Positions 1 through 36,887 of a DNA stretch of 36,887 nucleotides are shown here, in pieces. The notes below the pieces were generated by a model that was not told where the DNA came from, ran no database searches, and was given only the letters and a program-made list of their open reading frames with translations. Each line of letters begins with the position of its first letter. Position 1 is the first letter of the stretch. A program made the translations under genes and the position numbers. Source of the DNA: a bacterium (GTDB lineage Bacteria; Vulcanimicrobiota; Vulcanimicrobiia; Vulcanimicrobiales; Vulcanimicrobiaceae); the NCBI GenBank assembly GCA_021790895.1, contig JAJYFM010000018.1, positions 1 through 36,887 on the forward strand, written 5' to 3'.

Positions 1-32
1 GTAGTACGGGCGGCGCAACTGCACCGCAATAC

Positions 33-123
33 GGAGAGGTGGTCGAGCGGTTGAAGGCACCCGCCTCGAAAGCGGGCAGACGTGATGAGCGTCTCGAGAG
101 TTCGAATCTCTCCCTCTCCGCCA
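33..123 (+). tRNA. tRNA-Ser (anticodon CGA)
   Basis: A full cloverleaf can be folded. The acceptor arms are GGAGAGG (33-39) and CCTCTCC (113-119), the discriminator is G120, and CCA is encoded at 121-123. The anticodon stem CCCGC/GCGGG encloses the loop CTCGAAA, giving anticodon CGA at 67-69, which reads UCG. A long variable arm and the T-loop TTCGAAT are present, as expected for a type II serine tRNA. Confidence 0.97.
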
Positions 124-126
124 TGT

Positions 127-176
127 AGAACGCACCTCGAGCATGCCGAACGGCACGGGGTGCGTTCTCTCTATTT
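127..176 (+). terminator. Terminator-like hairpin after tRNA-Ser
   Basis: AGAACGCACC (127-136) pairs perfectly with GGTGCGTTCT (159-168), with a 22-nt loop. The following tract is only weakly T-rich (CTCTATTTC). The 3' arm GGGGTGCGTTCT recurs at 1492-1503, where it is followed by a better T-run (TTTT), so the intact terminator may originally have been continuous with the right-hand copy. Confidence 0.6.
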
Positions 177-197
177 CGCGCGCTGGGTTCTGGCGAA

Positions 198-240
198 CGG
201 ATGGTTTTCGCAATCGAGTCGCCAAGCGCAAACGCATGAA
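198..240 (+). repeat. Left copy of 43-bp perfect direct repeat
   Basis: This copy is identical to 1529-1571. It begins CGGATGGTTTTCGC and ends CGCATGAA. Just after it the reading frame continues as Met-Lys-Arg-Ser-Leu before diverging to a stop. It thus mimics the first codons (Met-Lys-Arg-Ser-Phe) of the BNR-repeat protein that begins inside the right copy. A shared 12-mer, GGGGTGCGTTCT, also precedes both copies (157-168 and 1492-1503). Confidence 0.9.
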
Positions 241-423
241 GAGATCGCTCCGTGGCAATATCGTGGGTTGCTGATCCGACAACGCCCACCGACGGGTCAA
301 CGGCGGGCATCGCTGCTGTCGAAACGGGTGAAACTAGTTGATGGGCATGTCTGGGCGAAAGCGGTCTAAGAACCACTCGCCAAGACATTGAATTTAGAAC
401 GAACTGAACTTAACGCGCCTCGC

Positions 424-1323
424 CTAAGCCCTATTCACAGGAACTACGATTACGGGTACCCGATGTAAATCGGCAAGGACGCGAAGGCGGGGTGGAAGTT
501 TTTTCTCGGTAACTAGGATTGATAATCCATTTGGAATTTTACCTTCGGCTTTTAGTTCTGCTCGTAGAAGCGCGCGGTATTTTACGCACTGATAAATGCC
601 GCGCTCTAGATCAGCGAGATTCGCGTTCGATGCCTTAACTTCCACAGCGGCGCAGCCTTTTTTATGTTTGAACAAAACGTCCACGCGGTCGGCTGATGCA
701 AATTGCCATTCGATTTTGCCGGAAGAATATGGAATGTCGTGTCCAAGTACGTCGGGGTTTTTCGAAACCCACTTCTTTAGTGCCTTATGTTGTTTACTCT
801 CGGCCTCATTTGACCAGCTTCTTTCAGGCTGCCTTTCGCGCCGACTGTTTTTTGAGCGCAGGCTGGGAATGCCGCCTTTTAGGGGTTTAAATCCATACCG
901 CTTTAGAAGGCTATCCCACTTTTGAAACTGCCACACCTCTTCCATCGTCTCCTCGGCCATCGCTTTTCGTTGCACGTCAGTCACGATTTTTGAACGGCGT
1001 TTTCCGAGATAGGATGCGAGATAGTAATCAGCACCAGTTCCGGGAATTCCCGATTTTGCATTAACAAGAATTGCGTTTAGGGGCGGAATGCGTTCGCCCT
1101 GAGTCGTCCTCATTTCTTGACATGCATCACCAACGGCACCCGCAGGGGATCCGTATTTGACCTCCATAACGTGGTCGCCCCATCCGCGCCGCTGCAGTTC
1201 TTTGTCCAATTGGCCGTATGTGATTGTTACTCCATTTTGCGCGCACCACACCAGGAGTGGGAACATACGCCTCGCGGTAGCCGGGGTCCACTCTTTGCCG
1301 TTGAGCGATTCCGGAAGCTCCAT
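424..1323 (-). CDS. PD-(D/E)XK nuclease-like protein with an N-terminal MGMT-like/winged-helix-like domain
   Basis: The protein has 299 residues. The C-terminal third shows a restriction-endonuclease-like core: Asp in RVDVLF, then a short hairpin to AAVEVKAS (the D...ExK triad), followed by a helix ending in a QCVKYRALL motif. The N-terminal region (about residues 30-105) contains ITYGQL followed by IPPLNAILVN and SGIPGTGADYYL. That arrangement resembles alkyltransferase-like or winged-helix DNA-binding modules, though this is inference. The ATG at 1323 is supported by GAGG about eight bases upstream. The gene is more AT-rich than its surroundings and stands alone between direct repeats, which suggests horizontal acquisition. 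A DNA-targeting or defence role is plausible, but no partner methylase or helicase is present. Confidence 0.75.
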   Translation of the reverse strand: MELPESLNGKEWTPATARRMFPLLVWCAQNGVTITYGQLDKELQRRGWGDHVMEVKYGSPAGAVGDACQEMRTTQGERIPPLNAILVNAKSGIPGTGADYYLASYLGKRRSKIVTDVQRKAMAEETMEEVWQFQKWDSLLKRYGFKPLKGGIPSLRSKNSRRERQPERSWSNEAESKQHKALKKWVSKNPDVLGHDIPYSSGKIEWQFASADRVDVLFKHKKGCAAVEVKASNANLADLERGIYQCVKYRALLRAELKAEGKIPNGLSILVTEKKLPPRLRVLADLHRVPVIVVPVNRA

Positions 1324-1528
1324 GCCAACCCTCGTTCCAAAGTCTAGCGATGTCGTTGGCTTGAACCGCGCGACGAGACGTTAGCCGATTCTCGGTAGCC
1401 AGCGCCTAGCCGACCGTTCGGGTTCTTTCATGGGTACGCCTCCGACTGCCGTATTCGGTTTGGTGCCAGATTTTTGGGAAAGGCCTGGCTTGGGGTGCGT
1501 TCTTTTTGCTGCGCGCGGATGTACGCAG

Positions 1529-1571
1529 CGGATGGTTTTCGCAATCGAGTCGCCAAGCGCAAACGCATGAA
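1529..1571 (+). repeat. Right copy of 43-bp perfect direct repeat
   Basis: This copy is identical to 198-240 and is offset from it by 1331 bp. It ends inside the start of the BNR-repeat protein gene: the ATG at 1567-1569 lies within the repeat. The upstream region of that gene therefore exists in two copies, and either copy could be the ancestral one. Confidence 0.9.
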
Positions 1572-4548
1572 ACGCTCGTTCGTGTTGCTCCCGATGCTCC
1601 TCGTCGCGCTTGCAGCGAGCGGTCGCTCGGCCCCGCCTCTAGGATCTATTCCATGGCGCTCGGTCGGCCCAGCGATCTCCGGTGGTCGCGCGAGCAGCGT
1701 CGCCGGAAGCAACCTCGATCCGATGTTGGTGGTGGTCGGGAGTGCGGGCGGCGGCGTTTGGCGCAGCGATGACGGTGGCTTGCACTTTCGGCCGATCTTC
1801 GACGGCGAGCCGGTCAGCGCGATCGGTGCCGTCGCAGTCGATCCCGCAAACGCAGCGACGATCTGGGTCGGCACCGGGGAAGCGAACCCGCGCAACGACG
1901 TGAGTTTAGGGAACGGACTCTATCGCAGTACGAACGCGGGTGCGAGTTGGGTGCGCTCGCTTGCGCTTCCGCAGAGTTCGATCTCGACGATTCTCGTCGA
2001 TCCACAGAATCCCACGCACGTTATCGTCGGCGTGCTCGGCAATCCGTTCGCGGCGACGAACGACCGAGGCATCTACGTCACCGACGATAACGGTGCGACC
2101 TGGCGTCACACGTTCTTTCTCGATGCACGCACCGGCATCTCCGACATGGCGATGAACCCGAAGAATCCACGGGAGATTTTCGCCGGAGCGTGGACGATGC
2201 GCCGCACCGGCTGGAGCCTGCAGAGCGGCGGCACGCTCGACGGACTCTATCGCTCGATTGACGGCGGGGCGACGTGGCAACGCGTACAGGCGCCGGGGCT
2301 GCCGAAAGGGCCGCTTGGGCGCATCGCGGTGGCGTTCGCGCCGTCGAATCCCGCGCGTATCTACGCGCTGATTCAATCGCACGCGGGGCTGCTCTGGCGC
2401 ACGAGCGATGGCGGCGCGCACTGGAGAAATGTCAGCAACGACTCGACGATCGACGAGCGTCCATTTTATTTCACGCATCTCGCCGTCGATCCGAAAAACG
2501 AGAACCATCTTTGGTCGGTATCGGTGCATTTAACCGAGAGCACCGACGGTGGCTTGCATTGGCATATTACCGGGCACGGAACGCACGGCGATCACCACGA
2601 TATTTGGATCTCCGCCGACGGCGTTCGCATGCTTGAAGCCGATGACGGCGGGCTCGCGATGAGTAACGACGGCGGCAAACAGTGGCTCTGGCGCAAGGTT
2701 CTGCCGATCTCGCAACTCTATCGCGTCGGCGTCAGCGCCGGTTGGAATTATCGTGCCTGCGTGCCGCTGCAAGATAACGGTATCTATTGCGCGCACGTGG
2801 CGATGCCCGATCCGAGCGGTTTTTCATCGAGCGCATGGCGCAACGTCGGTGGTGGCGACGGCACGGCGGCCCTTCCGGATCCGAGCGACCCGAATATCGT
2901 GTGGACGACCTCCGCCGGCGGCAATTACGATACGACGTTGCAATCGGTCGATCTCCGCAACGGGGCAACGCGCGATCTCTCGCCGTACATGCGCGACCAA
3001 AATGTCGTTCCGCCGGCGGAGTTACGGTATCGCTTTAATTGGGAGACGCCACTCGCCTTCGACCCGTTCGATGCGCATCGACTCTACACGGCGGGAGATG
3101 TGCTCTTTTCCACCACCGATCGCGGGATGCATTGGAAGGTTCGGAGCCCCGATCTCACGCTGCATGATCTCGCGCACGAACGGATGACGGGTGGGCTGAC
3201 GCTCGACGGCACCGGCGCGGAGACCAGCGATACGATTCTTACGATCGTGCCTTCGACGCTGCGGCGGGGCGAGATATGGGTCGGCACCGACGACGGACTC
3301 ATCCAACTGACACGCGACGGCGGCAAACATTGGACGAATATTACGCCGCACGGTGCGGTGCGCTTCGGGCGCTTTGCCTCGATCGCGCTCTCGCCACGGC
3401 GACCGGGATGGGCGTACGCGATCGAAGATAACCACATGATCGGCGACGCGCGCCCCTATGTTTTCCGAACGACCGATTACGGAGCGCATTGGTCGCGGAT
3501 CGACAATGGATTGCCGATTGAACCTGCGCGTTGTATTACCGTCGACCCGCGCACCGCGGGGCTGCTCTATCTCGGAATGGAGCGCGGCATCGAAGCTTCT
3601 TGGGATGGCGGCGCGCATTGGAGGCGCATTAACGGTAGCATGCCGGCGGTCTCGGTGCGCGCGATCGTCGTACAACCGCAGCGCAACGATCTGCTCGTCG
3701 CGACGCACGGGCGCGGGCTCTACATTCTCGATGACGCCTCGGCGTTGCAGGGTTTTGCGCGCGCGGCACGCCGGGGGCTTGCGTTTTTCGCCCCACGCAA
3801 ATCCTATCTCCTCAACGATGTCTCATGGTGGAATACCCGTGCCGACGGCACATCGGCACCGTACGGCGCGATCTTTTCGTACTATCAATCGACGGCGAGC
3901 GCAAAAGCGCCGCAGATTTCGATTGAGAATGCACGGGGCAAGGTGGTTCGGCATCTCTCGTTGCTGCCGAACGGTGCGGGGATGAATCGCGTCACCTGGG
4001 ATCTCAGCGAGGATCCGCCGGTTTCGTGGAAGAGCGCACCGCGTTGGAACCGCGGCTATGTCGGTGGGGCCTCGGTCGTGCCGGGAGTCTATACCGTCCG
4101 GCTCACGCTCCACGGCAAGACGTTCTCGCAGCCGCTGATCGTTGCCGGCGATCCGCGCATGCACGCATCGATCGCTGCGTATCGCGTCGCTCAGCAAGCT
4201 ACGCGGCGCGCCTTTGCTATGCTTTCGTCGATCGATACGGTCCTCAACGCCCTCGATGTGCGCGAAGCGAGGATCCGGGCGCTCCCAGCGAGCGCGAAGC
4301 GCACCGCAGCGTTGGCGCGCATCGCGGCGCTGCGCGCAAGCCTCACCTCGAGCCCGCATGCCGACCAAGACAACGATTTTCTCCGCGATCGCCTCCGCGA
4401 GCGGGTGCAGACGGAGATAGGGTCGTTGCAGACCTCGTTCGTAAGCCCAACTGCCGAACAACTGCGCGAGAATGCCGTGTTGGCGCGGTTGACCGCGCAA
4501 CGCGTCGGGCGCGTTAAGGCGTGGCTTGCGGGCGCGGAGTCCCCATAA
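1567..4548 (+). CDS. Secreted BNR/Asp-box repeat beta-propeller protein (VPS10/sialidase-like fold)
   Basis: The product has 993 residues. The ATG at 1567 is chosen because it opens a clean signal peptide (MKRSFVLLPMLLVALAASG); the open frame extends 31 codons further upstream without one. At least ten Asp-box motifs are visible, including RSDDGG, RSTNAGASW, TDDNGATW, RSIDGGATW, RTSDGGAHW, LTRDGGKHW, RTTDYGAHW and ASWDGGAHW. They indicate one or two beta-propellers over about residues 30-720. The C-terminal 270 residues contain a beta-rich segment (GVYTVRLTLHGKTFSQPL) and then a helical region. The whole matches the roughly 1000-residue WD40/YVTN/BNR glycosyl-hydrolase-like proteins of soil bacteria. 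No catalytic sialidase residues are identifiable, so the substrate is unknown. Its 3' end overlaps the convergent next gene by 35 bp. Confidence 0.88.
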   Translation: MKRSFVLLPMLLVALAASGRSAPPLGSIPWRSVGPAISGGRASSVAGSNLDPMLVVVGSAGGGVWRSDDGGLHFRPIFDGEPVSAIGAVAVDPANAATIWVGTGEANPRNDVSLGNGLYRSTNAGASWVRSLALPQSSISTILVDPQNPTHVIVGVLGNPFAATNDRGIYVTDDNGATWRHTFFLDARTGISDMAMNPKNPREIFAGAWTMRRTGWSLQSGGTLDGLYRSIDGGATWQRVQAPGLPKGPLGRIAVAFAPSNPARIYALIQSHAGLLWRTSDGGAHWRNVSNDSTIDERPFYFTHLAVDPKNENHLWSVSVHLTESTDGGLHWHITGHGTHGDHHDIWISADGVRMLEADDGGLAMSNDGGKQWLWRKVLPISQLYRVGVSAGWNYRACVPLQDNGIYCAHVAMPDPSGFSSSAWRNVGGGDGTAALPDPSDPNIVWTTSAGGNYDTTLQSVDLRNGATRDLSPYMRDQNVVPPAELRYRFNWETPLAFDPFDAHRLYTAGDVLFSTTDRGMHWKVRSPDLTLHDLAHERMTGGLTLDGTGAETSDTILTIVPSTLRRGEIWVGTDDGLIQLTRDGGKHWTNITPHGAVRFGRFASIALSPRRPGWAYAIEDNHMIGDARPYVFRTTDYGAHWSRIDNGLPIEPARCITVDPRTAGLLYLGMERGIEASWDGGAHWRRINGSMPAVSVRAIVVQPQRNDLLVATHGRGLYILDDASALQGFARAARRGLAFFAPRKSYLLNDVSWWNTRADGTSAPYGAIFSYYQSTASAKAPQISIENARGKVVRHLSLLPNGAGMNRVTWDLSEDPPVSWKSAPRWNRGYVGGASVVPGVYTVRLTLHGKTFSQPLIVAGDPRMHASIAAYRVAQQATRRAFAMLSSIDTVLNALDVREARIRALPASAKRTAALARIAALRASLTSSPHADQDNDFLRDRLRERVQTEIGSLQTSFVSPTAEQLRENAVLARLTAQRVGRVKAWLAGAESP

Positions 4549-7326: not shown

Positions 7327-8520
7327 TTAGGCGGGCGGTTCGCTCGTCCCTGAATCGGGTGGCTCCCACTGCCACCCAACCCCGGATCCCGGTGCTCCCG
7401 GCTGCGGGGGCACCGCGAACGGCGGCGGAAAGGGCGCACCGAAGCTCGGTTGCCCCTCGGCTGTTTCCGTCGGCGGTGCGAAACCCGTTCCCGGTGGGGG
7501 TGCAAAGCTCGGCGGCGGCACGAAGGTCGGCGGTGGAACGAAGCTCGGCGGCGGCACGAAGGTCGGCGAGGACTCCATAAAGCCCGGCGGGACACCCGGT
7601 GGGCGAATCGTCGGCGTCTCGGCCGGAACCGGCGGCGGCGGAAGCGGCGGAAATTCGTAGCCGTTCTCGGGGGTTACCTCGTTCTGCGTAACGCCGATAT
7701 CGACGCGTTTTGCGGGCGCAGGAGCCGCACTCGCCGCTGCGGTTGCAGCGAGTCGTTCTTCGAGCAGCGGCGGGCGAGCGGTAAAGAGCGGCGCCGGAAG
7801 GTCGCCGACGGCAGCGCCGACGAGCACGTTGCGCACCGGTGGAAGAATCTGCGCATCGGAGCGACGCGCAATCGCGCGTAACTCTTCGACGATATCGTCG
7901 GGAGCCGCTTCAGCTTTCATCGTATCGATCAATAAGGCGACGGTGTCGCGTAAGTATTGCGGCGGCGGTACCTTGGCGAATGCGAAGGTGTGTTGAGCGA
8001 GCTCGGCTTTGACGCCCTGCAAGAGTCGCTTCCAATGATCGATATTTTGATAGCGTTCGAAGAGCCCGGCGGTACGTTTTGCTTGCGCGTAGAGCGAGGC
8101 GATGCGTTTCCCTAACGGGTCGGCGGGCGGTGCGGGTTCGACGACGGCAACGCGCCCGGCAACGCGCGCGAGTTCGCCGAGAATCTGCGAATGGAAGAGC
8201 GGGTCGACTTCGTGAAGATAGTGGTAGGCGAGCCCAAGATCGAAACTCGCATCGCGCGCGGGGATGACCGAGGTGCTGCCGCGCAGGAGTGTGGCGCCGA
8301 TATTTGCATACTCCGCAATTGCAAGATCGCGCGATTCGATCACGGTAACGGTCGCGCCGCGTTCGAGTGCCGCGCGAACCGCGCGCGCCTCGTCACCGTA
8401 GCCGCAGATAAGGATCCGCTCGCCGGCGCGTAGCCCGACGGCATCCCAAATCAGCGCTTCGATATAGCGAGCCTCCGCTTCGAATTCTTGGACGGAATAG
8501 ACGTAATCGGAGATTTCCAT
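7327..8520 (-). CDS. Class I SAM-dependent methyltransferase-like protein with a proline-rich C-terminal tail
   Basis: The product has 397 residues. Residues 30-160 look like a Rossmann methyltransferase: ERILICGYGDEA is motif I, E62 in VTVIESRD would be the acidic ribose-binding residue, and FDLGLAYHYLHEVDPLF resembles motif IV. Residues 290-397 form a disordered Pro-rich tail with repeats such as SFVPPPTFVPPP. The start is fixed by a TAATG overlap: the ATG at 8520-8518 shares its A with the aroA stop, so translation is probably coupled. The open frame could extend 31 codons into aroA, but that stretch is Arg-rich and implausible. The methyl acceptor is unknown. The tail may mediate protein binding or surface tethering, which is inference. 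Confidence 0.75.
   Translation of the reverse strand: MEISDYVYSVQEFEAEARYIEALIWDAVGLRAGERILICGYGDEARAVRAALERGATVTVIESRDLAIAEYANIGATLLRGSTSVIPARDASFDLGLAYHYLHEVDPLFHSQILGELARVAGRVAVVEPAPPADPLGKRIASLYAQAKRTAGLFERYQNIDHWKRLLQGVKAELAQHTFAFAKVPPPQYLRDTVALLIDTMKAEAAPDDIVEELRAIARRSDAQILPPVRNVLVGAAVGDLPAPLFTARPPLLEERLAATAAASAAPAPAKRVDIGVTQNEVTPENGYEFPPLPPPPVPAETPTIRPPGVPPGFMESSPTFVPPPSFVPPPTFVPPPSFAPPPGTGFAPPTETAEGQPSFGAPFPPPFAVPPQPGAPGSGVGWQWEPPDSGTSEPPA
7505..7570 (-). repeat. 18-bp tandem repeat encoding Pro-rich hexapeptides
   Basis: Units at 7505-7522, 7523-7540 and 7541-7558, plus a partial unit to 7570, differ by a few bases. Read on the minus strand they encode the alternating hexapeptides SFVPPP, TFVPPP and SFAPPP. 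Such in-frame repeats change length easily by slippage. Confidence 0.85.
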
Positions 8521-9797
8521 TATGCCGTGACCCGCTGCAAGCGTTCGAAGAAATCGGGAAAACTCACGTCGACTTCGTCGACGGAGTCGATCGCGATCGG
8601 GCCGGCGGCGCACCCGAGCATCGCCGCTGCCATTTGAATGCGGTGGTCCCCAAAGGTCTCGATCGATATGCCCGATGCAACCGGCGAGCCGCCGTCGATC
8701 GCGATGCCGTTTGGGAGATCTTCGGCGGCGATGCCGACGGCACCCAAAAGGCGATGGATCGCAGCAAGCCGGTCGGATTCTTTATCGCGAAGATCGCGAA
8801 CGCCGGAGATCGTCGTTCGCCCGTCGGCGAATGCAGCGGCGATGGCGAGCAGCGGCAGTTCGTCGATCGCGCGCCGTGCGCTCTGCGTATCGATCGTCGT
8901 TGCATGCAGCGTCGCGTGTTCGACATAGAGATCGCCGATCGGTTCGCCGTTTTGCTCGCGCTGGTTGCGGCGTGCGATCCGCGCGCCCATCGCATCGAGT
9001 GCATCGAGCAGCCCGGTTCGGGTCGGATTGAGGTTCACGTCGCGAATCAGGAGTGCACTGCCGCGCGCGAGCGTCGCGCCGACGATGAAGAAGGCCGCTG
9101 CGGAAAAATCTCCGGGGATGACGATCTGCTCGCCACCGCGCACGGTCGGCTCGTAGAGATCGATCTCGTGCCCATTCCACGATATTCCCGCGCCCATCGC
9201 CGCGAGCAGCCGCTCGCTATGATCGCGCGTCTCGCGGTCACCGAATATTTTTATCGGCCTCTGCGCGAAGAGCGCGGCGAAGAGCAGCGCGGATTTTATT
9301 TGCGCGGAGGGATGCACGAGAATGATCTTCGCGGAGCGATCGTCGCTCGCCCCATCGATCCAGATCGGGAGTTTGCCGTCGGCGCTCGTGATGCGCGCGC
9401 CGAGCGCGCGTAGGTGAGCGGCGACCGGTTCCATCGGACGACGCGAGAGCGAGCTATCCCCAACGAAACGTGCGCGAATTCCCGCACCGGTGCAGACGCC
9501 GAGCAGCATGCGCGCCGTCGAGCCGGAATTCATCGCATCGATATCGGCGACCGGATCGTGAAGCGCGCCGCCAGTTACCACGTAAGCGTCGTCGTCGCGT
9601 GCGATCTTCGCTCCGAGTGCTTGCAAAGCGTTGGCCGTTGCGTGCAGATCGCGGCCGGGATTGAGGTTCTCGATGCGCGTTGCGCTGCCCGACGCCGCGG
9701 CGAGAATGAGGGCGCGGTGGGAGATCGATTTATCGCCGGGTACGGTGATTTCGCCGCGAAGGGGATGGGGTTCGAAACGAGGGGAGCGCAGAATCAT
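8520..9797 (-). CDS. aroA: 3-phosphoshikimate 1-carboxyvinyltransferase (EPSP synthase)
   Basis: The 425-residue product matches AroA in full. VPGDKSISHRALILAA (about 19-34) gives the Lys/Ser/Arg of the shikimate-3-phosphate site. Further hallmarks are AMNSGSTARMLLGV, LRDKESDRLAAIHR and, near the C-terminus, FGDHRIQMAAAM. The enzyme joins phosphoenolpyruvate to shikimate-3-phosphate in the sixth step of the shikimate pathway, in the cytosol. The ATG at 9797 precedes the conserved N-terminus directly. The stop overlaps the ATG of the downstream methyltransferase gene. No other aromatic pathway genes are nearby. Confidence 0.97.
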   Translation of the reverse strand: MILRSPRFEPHPLRGEITVPGDKSISHRALILAAASGSATRIENLNPGRDLHATANALQALGAKIARDDDAYVVTGGALHDPVADIDAMNSGSTARMLLGVCTGAGIRARFVGDSSLSRRPMEPVAAHLRALGARITSADGKLPIWIDGASDDRSAKIILVHPSAQIKSALLFAALFAQRPIKIFGDRETRDHSERLLAAMGAGISWNGHEIDLYEPTVRGGEQIVIPGDFSAAAFFIVGATLARGSALLIRDVNLNPTRTGLLDALDAMGARIARRNQREQNGEPIGDLYVEHATLHATTIDTQSARRAIDELPLLAIAAAFADGRTTISGVRDLRDKESDRLAAIHRLLGAVGIAAEDLPNGIAIDGGSPVASGISIETFGDHRIQMAAAMLGCAAGPIAIDSVDEVDVSFPDFFERLQRVTA

Positions 9798-36757: not shown

Positions 36758-36844
36758 AGGGCCACTCTTCGCGCTCGAGGCCCAGCACCCGTTCGCCGCG
36801 GGCGAGATCTCTCGATGCTTTTATAAACCATTGGAGGAACGATC

Positions 36845-36887
36845 GTGGCTGAAACCCTCGCGAAGCGTCCGCACGGAATCGGGCGTA
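36845..36887 (+). CDS. 5' end of a gene cut by the window edge
   Basis: The GTG at 36845 is preceded by GGAGGA (36833-36838), six bases away, and TATAAA (36822-36827) may be a promoter element. Fourteen codons are visible (AETLAKRPHGIGR after the initiator). The ending loosely recalls the N-terminus of ribosomal protein S9, but this is too short to call. Nothing else is seen in 36758-36821. Confidence 0.55.
   Translation, partial: MAETLAKRPHGIGR

What the first reader, a model, noticed from the sequence alone, without database searches (positions are those of the whole stretch)
157..1571. Single-gene segment bounded by 43-bp perfect direct repeats next to tRNA-Ser
The repeat at 198-240 recurs exactly at 1529-1571, and a flanking 12-mer (157-168, 1492-1503) extends the similarity into the tRNA-Ser terminator. 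Between them lies one AT-richer gene for a PD-(D/E)XK nuclease-like protein and nothing else. This looks like a minimal cargo island mobilised in trans, possibly a solitary defence gene at an integration hotspot. The repeats and composition are seen; mobility and defence are inferred.
Basis: partly seen in the sequence, partly recalled or inferred. Interest (0 to 1): 0.72.

Follow-up and report, generated by a model that had tools for sequence, protein, structure and literature searches.

The report
Foreign nuclease gene inserted beside tRNA-Ser
A single foreign gene for a DNA-cutting enzyme, probably an anti-virus protein, has landed between a tRNA gene and its neighbour in an uncultured bacterium, flanked by a duplicated stretch of the neighbour's start region; the gene belongs to an unnamed nuclease family that travels between distant bacteria, but the repeats are not a classical tRNA integration site.

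Summary
A 43-bp perfect direct repeat (198-240, 1529-1571) is the longest exact repeat in the window. It sits in a longer imperfect duplication (152-250, 1487-1581; 80% over 99 columns). It is not tRNA sequence: it is the leader and start of the downstream sortilin/VPS10-type gene (ATG 1567) plus half of the tRNA terminator. It occurs only twice in the genome.

All nine sister species keep tRNA-Ser next to the VPS10 gene. Two have a clean empty site. Six carry, and one has a remnant of, a probably ancestral EAL gene there. None has the nuclease, nor does any other of 149 genomes of the phylum. Its nearest relatives (70%, 67%) are alphaproteobacterial, beside a large serine recombinase (or its remnant) at tRNA genes. 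More distant ones are an integron-type cassette, defence-island genes or solitary genes.

So it is a cross-phylum acquisition of a solitary PD-(D/E)XK nuclease, probably anti-phage. Integration "in trans" at a tRNA att site is not supported; duplication of host leader DNA by recombination or break repair fits better. The protein family is unnamed in Pfam, NCBIfam, PHROGs and PADLOC.

The parts
33..123 (+). tRNA-Ser (CGA), next to tadA on the upstream contig C37
   Evidence: ARAGORN, Rfam; tadA-like gene at the start of C37; C37 overlaps window 1-127 exactly
127..168 (+). hairpin (terminator-like) after tRNA-Ser; its 3' arm is repeated at 1487-1503
   Evidence: inverted repeats I2 and I3
152..250 (+). 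left copy of the duplicated host segment: terminator arm, linker, leader, ATG 236 and about four codons, then degenerate (stop at 270-272)
   Evidence: alignment to 1487-1581, 80%; alignment with sister species
198..240 (+). 43-bp perfect repeat, left
   Evidence: two copies in the genome by the inner 29 bases
424..1323 (-). 299-aa solitary PD-(D/E)XK nuclease gene; D215, E228-x-K230, Q245 conserved; convergent with tRNA-Ser
1487..1581 (+). right copy of the duplicated segment, continuous with the intact downstream gene
1529..1571 (+). 43-bp perfect repeat, right; leader and start codon of the VPS10-type gene
1567..4548 (+). sortilin/VPS10-type BNR-repeat gene, the conserved right neighbour in all ten genus members
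   Evidence: Pfam PF15902 E 4.9e-22

Best explanation
A single foreign gene for a PD-(D/E)XK nuclease was acquired from outside the phylum and inserted between tRNA-Ser and the VPS10-type gene, at a spot where the EAL gene had been lost. The insertion left a second, now broken copy of about 99 bp of host sequence (terminator arm, leader, first codons) on the far side. The repeats are a by-product of recombination or break repair in host leader DNA (single crossover with a molecule carrying a related leader copy, or a staggered break filled in on both sides), not a tRNA attachment site. The 43-bp core stayed or became identical through recombination between the copies and could allow RecA-type loss back to an empty site. 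The protein most likely protects against phage or other incoming DNA: the mostly helical N-terminal domain would recognise DNA or a signal, and the D215/E228-x-K230 site would cut DNA. Shown: foreign origin, the insertion anatomy, empty sites in sisters, the predicted fold, conserved catalytic residues. Inferred: the recombination route, order of EAL loss and insertion, DNA cleavage, defence.
For: Empty sites with one leader copy in G001 and G007, and EAL gene or remnant in seven others, at the same synteny. Nuclease absent elsewhere in the phylum; nearest kin alphaproteobacterial at 70% and 67%; alien composition. The repeat is VPS10 leader sequence found once in sisters and only twice in this genome. 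No PF07508 recombinase in the genome, no recombinase trace in the flanks, no attC. PD-(D/E)XK fold and invariant active-site residues. Family members lie among restriction, methylase, Abi and Shedu genes and in an integron-type cassette, a known store of anti-phage genes (PMC12409362).
Against: Only one genome carries the insertion, so its mobility, age and exact mechanism cannot be tested. The 43-bp perfect block between diverged flanks could also be a recombinase core. The assembly is 84% complete, so a recombinase could be missing, and three tyrosine recombinases are present. No PADLOC model matches the window protein and no member has a tested function known to me.
Confidence: 0.6

Rival explanations
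1. Site-specific integration: the 43 bp is an att core used by a tyrosine or serine recombinase supplied in trans, making this a minimal integrase-less mobile island next to a tRNA.
For: Perfect 43-bp core between diverged flanks; the closest homologue is carried directly upstream of a large serine recombinase abutting a tRNA, and another beside a remnant of it, in the same orientation relative to the tRNA; three tyrosine recombinases in the genome.
Against: The core is not tRNA sequence but the leader and start codon of the VPS10 gene, and similarity continues for tens of bases into host DNA on both sides; no PF07508 recombinase; no viral contig carries the core; only two copies in the genome.
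Confidence: 0.17
2. Decayed integrative element: a recombinase-carrying element like that of Methylocella inserted here and later lost everything but the nuclease, the repeats being a later local duplication.
For: Same gene and orientation relative to a tRNA in Methylocella and Nitrospirillum, the latter with only a recombinase remnant.
Against: No recombinase, small-ORF or tRNA-end remnant in 241-423 or 1324-1486; the integration site is not the tRNA end.
Confidence: 0.12
3. The nuclease is not for defence but a NucS/EndoMS-like or SfsA-like housekeeping or repair enzyme.
For: Best Foldseek matches of the catalytic domain are NucS/EndoMS and SfsA.
Against: Patchy distribution, presence in one of 149 genomes of the phylum, repeated links to restriction and methylation genes and to mobile vehicles.
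Confidence: 0.15
4. Assembly artefact: the repeats come from joining two strains.
For: The genome is a fragmented assembly (154 contigs) and the window begins in sequence shared with another contig.
Against: Exact 127-bp overlaps at both contig ends suggest a k=127 graph; the 43-bp repeat and the 99-bp duplication are shorter than that and would be spanned by unique k-mers.
Confidence: 0.04

Closest known systems
Nuclease gene upstream of a large serine recombinase at a tRNA (Methylocella tundrae L044; remnant in Nitrospirillum iridis L043)
   Same: Orthologous-looking nuclease (67-70% identical), convergent with a tRNA gene, small-cargo slot next to the recombinase
   Different: Window has no recombinase, no relaxase, no tRNA-end repeat; its repeats are leader DNA of a protein gene
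Single-gene integron cassettes with anti-phage function
   Same: A distant family member (L056) is such a cassette between attC-like sites; one gene, small size
   Different: No attC-like site or integron integrase context in the window
Core-gene-flanked defence hotspots (cDHS type, PMC10250203)
   Same: Foreign, probably defensive gene between conserved core genes, no integrase visible; transfer through flanking homology was proposed there
   Different: One gene in one species only; the spot otherwise holds an EAL gene or nothing, so a hotspot is not shown
PD-(D/E)XK nucleases NucS/EndoMS, SfsA, Can2/Card1, XisH
   Same: Catalytic-domain fold and D...ExK...Q arrangement
   Different: Different N-terminal part; no credible sequence-level relation; full-length TM about 0.3

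Membership tests
PD-(D/E)XK nuclease superfamily | D and E-x-K active-site residues conserved across the family | tested here: met
   D215, E228, K230, Q245 invariant in two alignments
PD-(D/E)XK nuclease superfamily | alpha-beta core fold | tested here: met
   model pLDDT 80.5; Foldseek NucS 2vld E 3.7e-4, prob 1.00
PD-(D/E)XK nuclease superfamily | nuclease activity | not testable with these tools
   needs biochemistry
Known anti-phage defence system | match to a PADLOC model | tested here: not met
   best E 0.019 for the window protein; none at 0.01
Known anti-phage defence system | phage protection | not testable with these tools
   needs a plaque assay
Integrative element in a tRNA gene | repeat is the 3' end of the tRNA | tested here: not met
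   repeat lies at 198-240, 75 bp beyond the tRNA, and is VPS10 leader sequence
Integrative element in a tRNA gene | own integrase or recombinase | tested here: not met
   only the nuclease between the repeats; no PF07508 protein in the genome
Integrative element in a tRNA gene | empty site in relatives | tested here: met
   G001 and G007 have one leader copy and no gene
Integron gene cassette | attC site beside the gene | tested here: not met
   no R''/R' pair in the flanks, while the same scan finds them in L056
Dispersed repeat element | many copies in the genome | tested here: not met
   two copies only

The most novel reading that the evidence does not exclude
An unnamed family of solitary anti-phage PD-(D/E)XK nucleases spreads as one-gene cargo by whatever vehicle is at hand: integron-type cassettes, serine-recombinase elements at tRNA genes, and here an integrase-free insertion that duplicates a host gene leader and stays reversible through the repeat. 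The last would be a distinct, homology-based way of swapping single defence genes.
Probability: 0.2. Interest if true: 0.65.

Novelty: new member of a known kind. Interest (0 to 1): 0.4.

Why it matters
It is a clean case of a single, probably defensive gene crossing phyla into a small-genome uncultured lineage, with sister species that preserve the empty site. It also points to an unannotated nuclease family, found as an integron-type cassette and beside an integrative-element recombinase, that is small enough to test directly against phages.

Tried and rejected
Dispersed repeat: rejected, the inner core occurs only twice in the genome. tRNA attB: rejected, the repeat lies outside the tRNA. 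attC or integron cassette in the window: rejected. Recombinase remnant in the flanks by blastn and tblastx: none. Virus carrying the core: none. Homologues in the phages collection: none. Direct repeats around 15 other homologues: one strong case (G545, 78 columns, 73%), but a third similar sequence exists elsewhere in that genome, and a few marginal ones, so not accepted as the same mechanism. Pfam DUF6189 and PADLOC PDC-S11 hits are below significance. A single-sequence fold gave a poor model. PDB sequence searches gave nothing credible. My recollection that the N-terminal domain resembles the MGMT DNA-binding domain got no support from Pfam.

Full report
Observation. The 43-bp repeat at 198-240 and 1529-1571 is exact and is the longest exact forward repeat of the window; the next is 28 bp. 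It is the centre of a longer duplication: 152-250 against 1487-1581 align at 80% over 99 columns with E 3e-19, far above shuffled flanks (score 53, maximum of 40 shuffles 15). Outside the core only 36 of 56 columns match. The core, sought by its inner 29 bases with up to 3 mismatches, occurs nowhere else in the 2.1-Mb assembly.

What the repeat is. The right copy runs into the start of a sortilin/VPS10-type gene (Pfam PF15902): the core ends with its ATG at 1567 and the first two bases of codon 2. Sister species have the orthologous sequence once, at the same place before the same gene. The left copy keeps the ATG and a few codons, then meets a stop at 270-272. The left edge of both copies is the 3' arm of the hairpin that follows tRNA-Ser. 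So the repeat is host leader DNA and not tRNA sequence.

Comparison with relatives. All ten genus members hold tRNA-Ser next to the VPS10-type gene. G001 and G007 have about 85-92 bp between the tRNA end and a single leader copy: an empty site. G002, G003, G004, G006, G008 and G009 carry an EAL-domain gene on the minus strand in that gap (Pfam EAL E 1.6e-51 for the G008 protein), and G005 a truncated one. On a tree of the VPS10-type gene G000 branches outside the pairs G001/G007 and G003/G008. The tree needs three changes of the EAL label; I infer that EAL is ancestral and that G000 lost it separately from G001/G007. The nuclease is in none of the 197 other relatives searched by protein, and by profile only in the window genome among 149 genomes of the phylum. 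Across the wider family tRNA-Ser(CGA) is often flanked by a tadA-like gene, recognised from its sequence, and no integrase was seen there by eye. The contig upstream of the window begins with a tadA-like gene, so the order is tadA, tRNA-Ser, insertion, VPS10.

The gene. GC is 50.7% against 60-69% for the other long ORFs, and codon adaptation is the lowest. The closest homologues found are in Nitrospirillum iridis (70% overall) and Methylocella tundrae (67%). In Methylocella the gene overlaps by 4 bp the start of a 559-aa large serine recombinase (Resolvase, Recombinase and zinc-ribbon domains) whose frame runs into tRNA-Arg. In Nitrospirillum it is followed by what reads as the C-terminal piece of the same recombinase, abutting tRNA-Ser. 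The same recombinase family on other plasmids has other small genes in that slot. The window contains neither the recombinase nor a recognisable remnant, and the genome has no PF07508 protein.

Other homologues. On a Rhizobium plasmid the relative lies between a restriction endonuclease and a DNA methyltransferase with Shedu nearby; next to Abi genes in Chryseobacterium; near a DNA methyltransferase in Rhodovastum; near cytosine methylase and Vsr genes, and near an adenine methylase, in two virus-flagged contigs; alone between SPFH and mutL genes in G816, there with a stop inside; and, in contig L056, as a single-gene cassette next to attC-like sites. Integron cassettes are a recognised reservoir of anti-phage genes (PMC12409362).

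Fold. With an eight-sequence alignment the model reaches pLDDT 80.5. Foldseek places the C-terminal part with NucS/EndoMS, SfsA, Can2/Card1 and XisH, i.e. PD-(D/E)XK. D212, D215, E228, K230, Q245, K248 and Y249 are invariant in both alignments. No Pfam, NCBIfam, PHROGs or PADLOC family claims the window protein.

How it got there. A tRNA-site integration predicts that the repeat is the 3' end of the tRNA; it is not. Duplication of host leader DNA during insertion explains why the repeat spans a terminator arm, a leader and a start codon, and why sister species have exactly one copy. The two 43-bp copies share variants not seen in the sisters (GAGTCG, GCAAACGC), so they are recently related, while their flanks have diverged. 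This fits either a single crossover with a molecule carrying a related leader copy, or a break-repair duplication followed by conversion of the core. These cannot be separated with one genome. A dedicated recombinase acting on the core remains possible; the genome has three tyrosine recombinases.

Assembly. Both window ends overlap other contigs by exactly 127 bp, as in a k=127 graph; the repeats are shorter than that, so a misjoin is unlikely. The branch at the window start hints at strain variation near this locus but does not prove it.

Verdict. Real, foreign, single-gene insertion; likely defence nuclease of an unnamed family; repeats probably a scar of insertion rather than a mobile-island att pair.

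Noticed in passing
window 1-127 and 36761-36887: Both contig ends are shared exactly (127 bp) with other contigs of the assembly (C37, C2), which looks like k=127 graph junctions; the left one lies at the tRNA-Ser just before the insertion, hinting at strain variation there.
   Followed up: partly
L056 2930-4830: Single-gene cassettes with attC-like sites, one encoding a distant relative of the window nuclease, inside a virus-flagged contig that also carries an integrase-like gene.
   Followed up: partly
L095 5123-5200 and 6528-6603: Another solitary relative of the nuclease is bounded by a 78-column, 73% direct repeat at about the same spacing (1.4 kb); a third similar sequence lies elsewhere in that genome.
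   Followed up: partly
L044 5710-5930 and L043 5715-5945: A short open frame of about 70 codons with similar sequence precedes the nuclease in both serine-recombinase loci (seen by eye); absent from the window.
   Followed up: no
window 7505 and 7541: A 28-bp exact direct repeat at 36-bp spacing within the minus-strand ORF 7327-8613.
   Followed up: no
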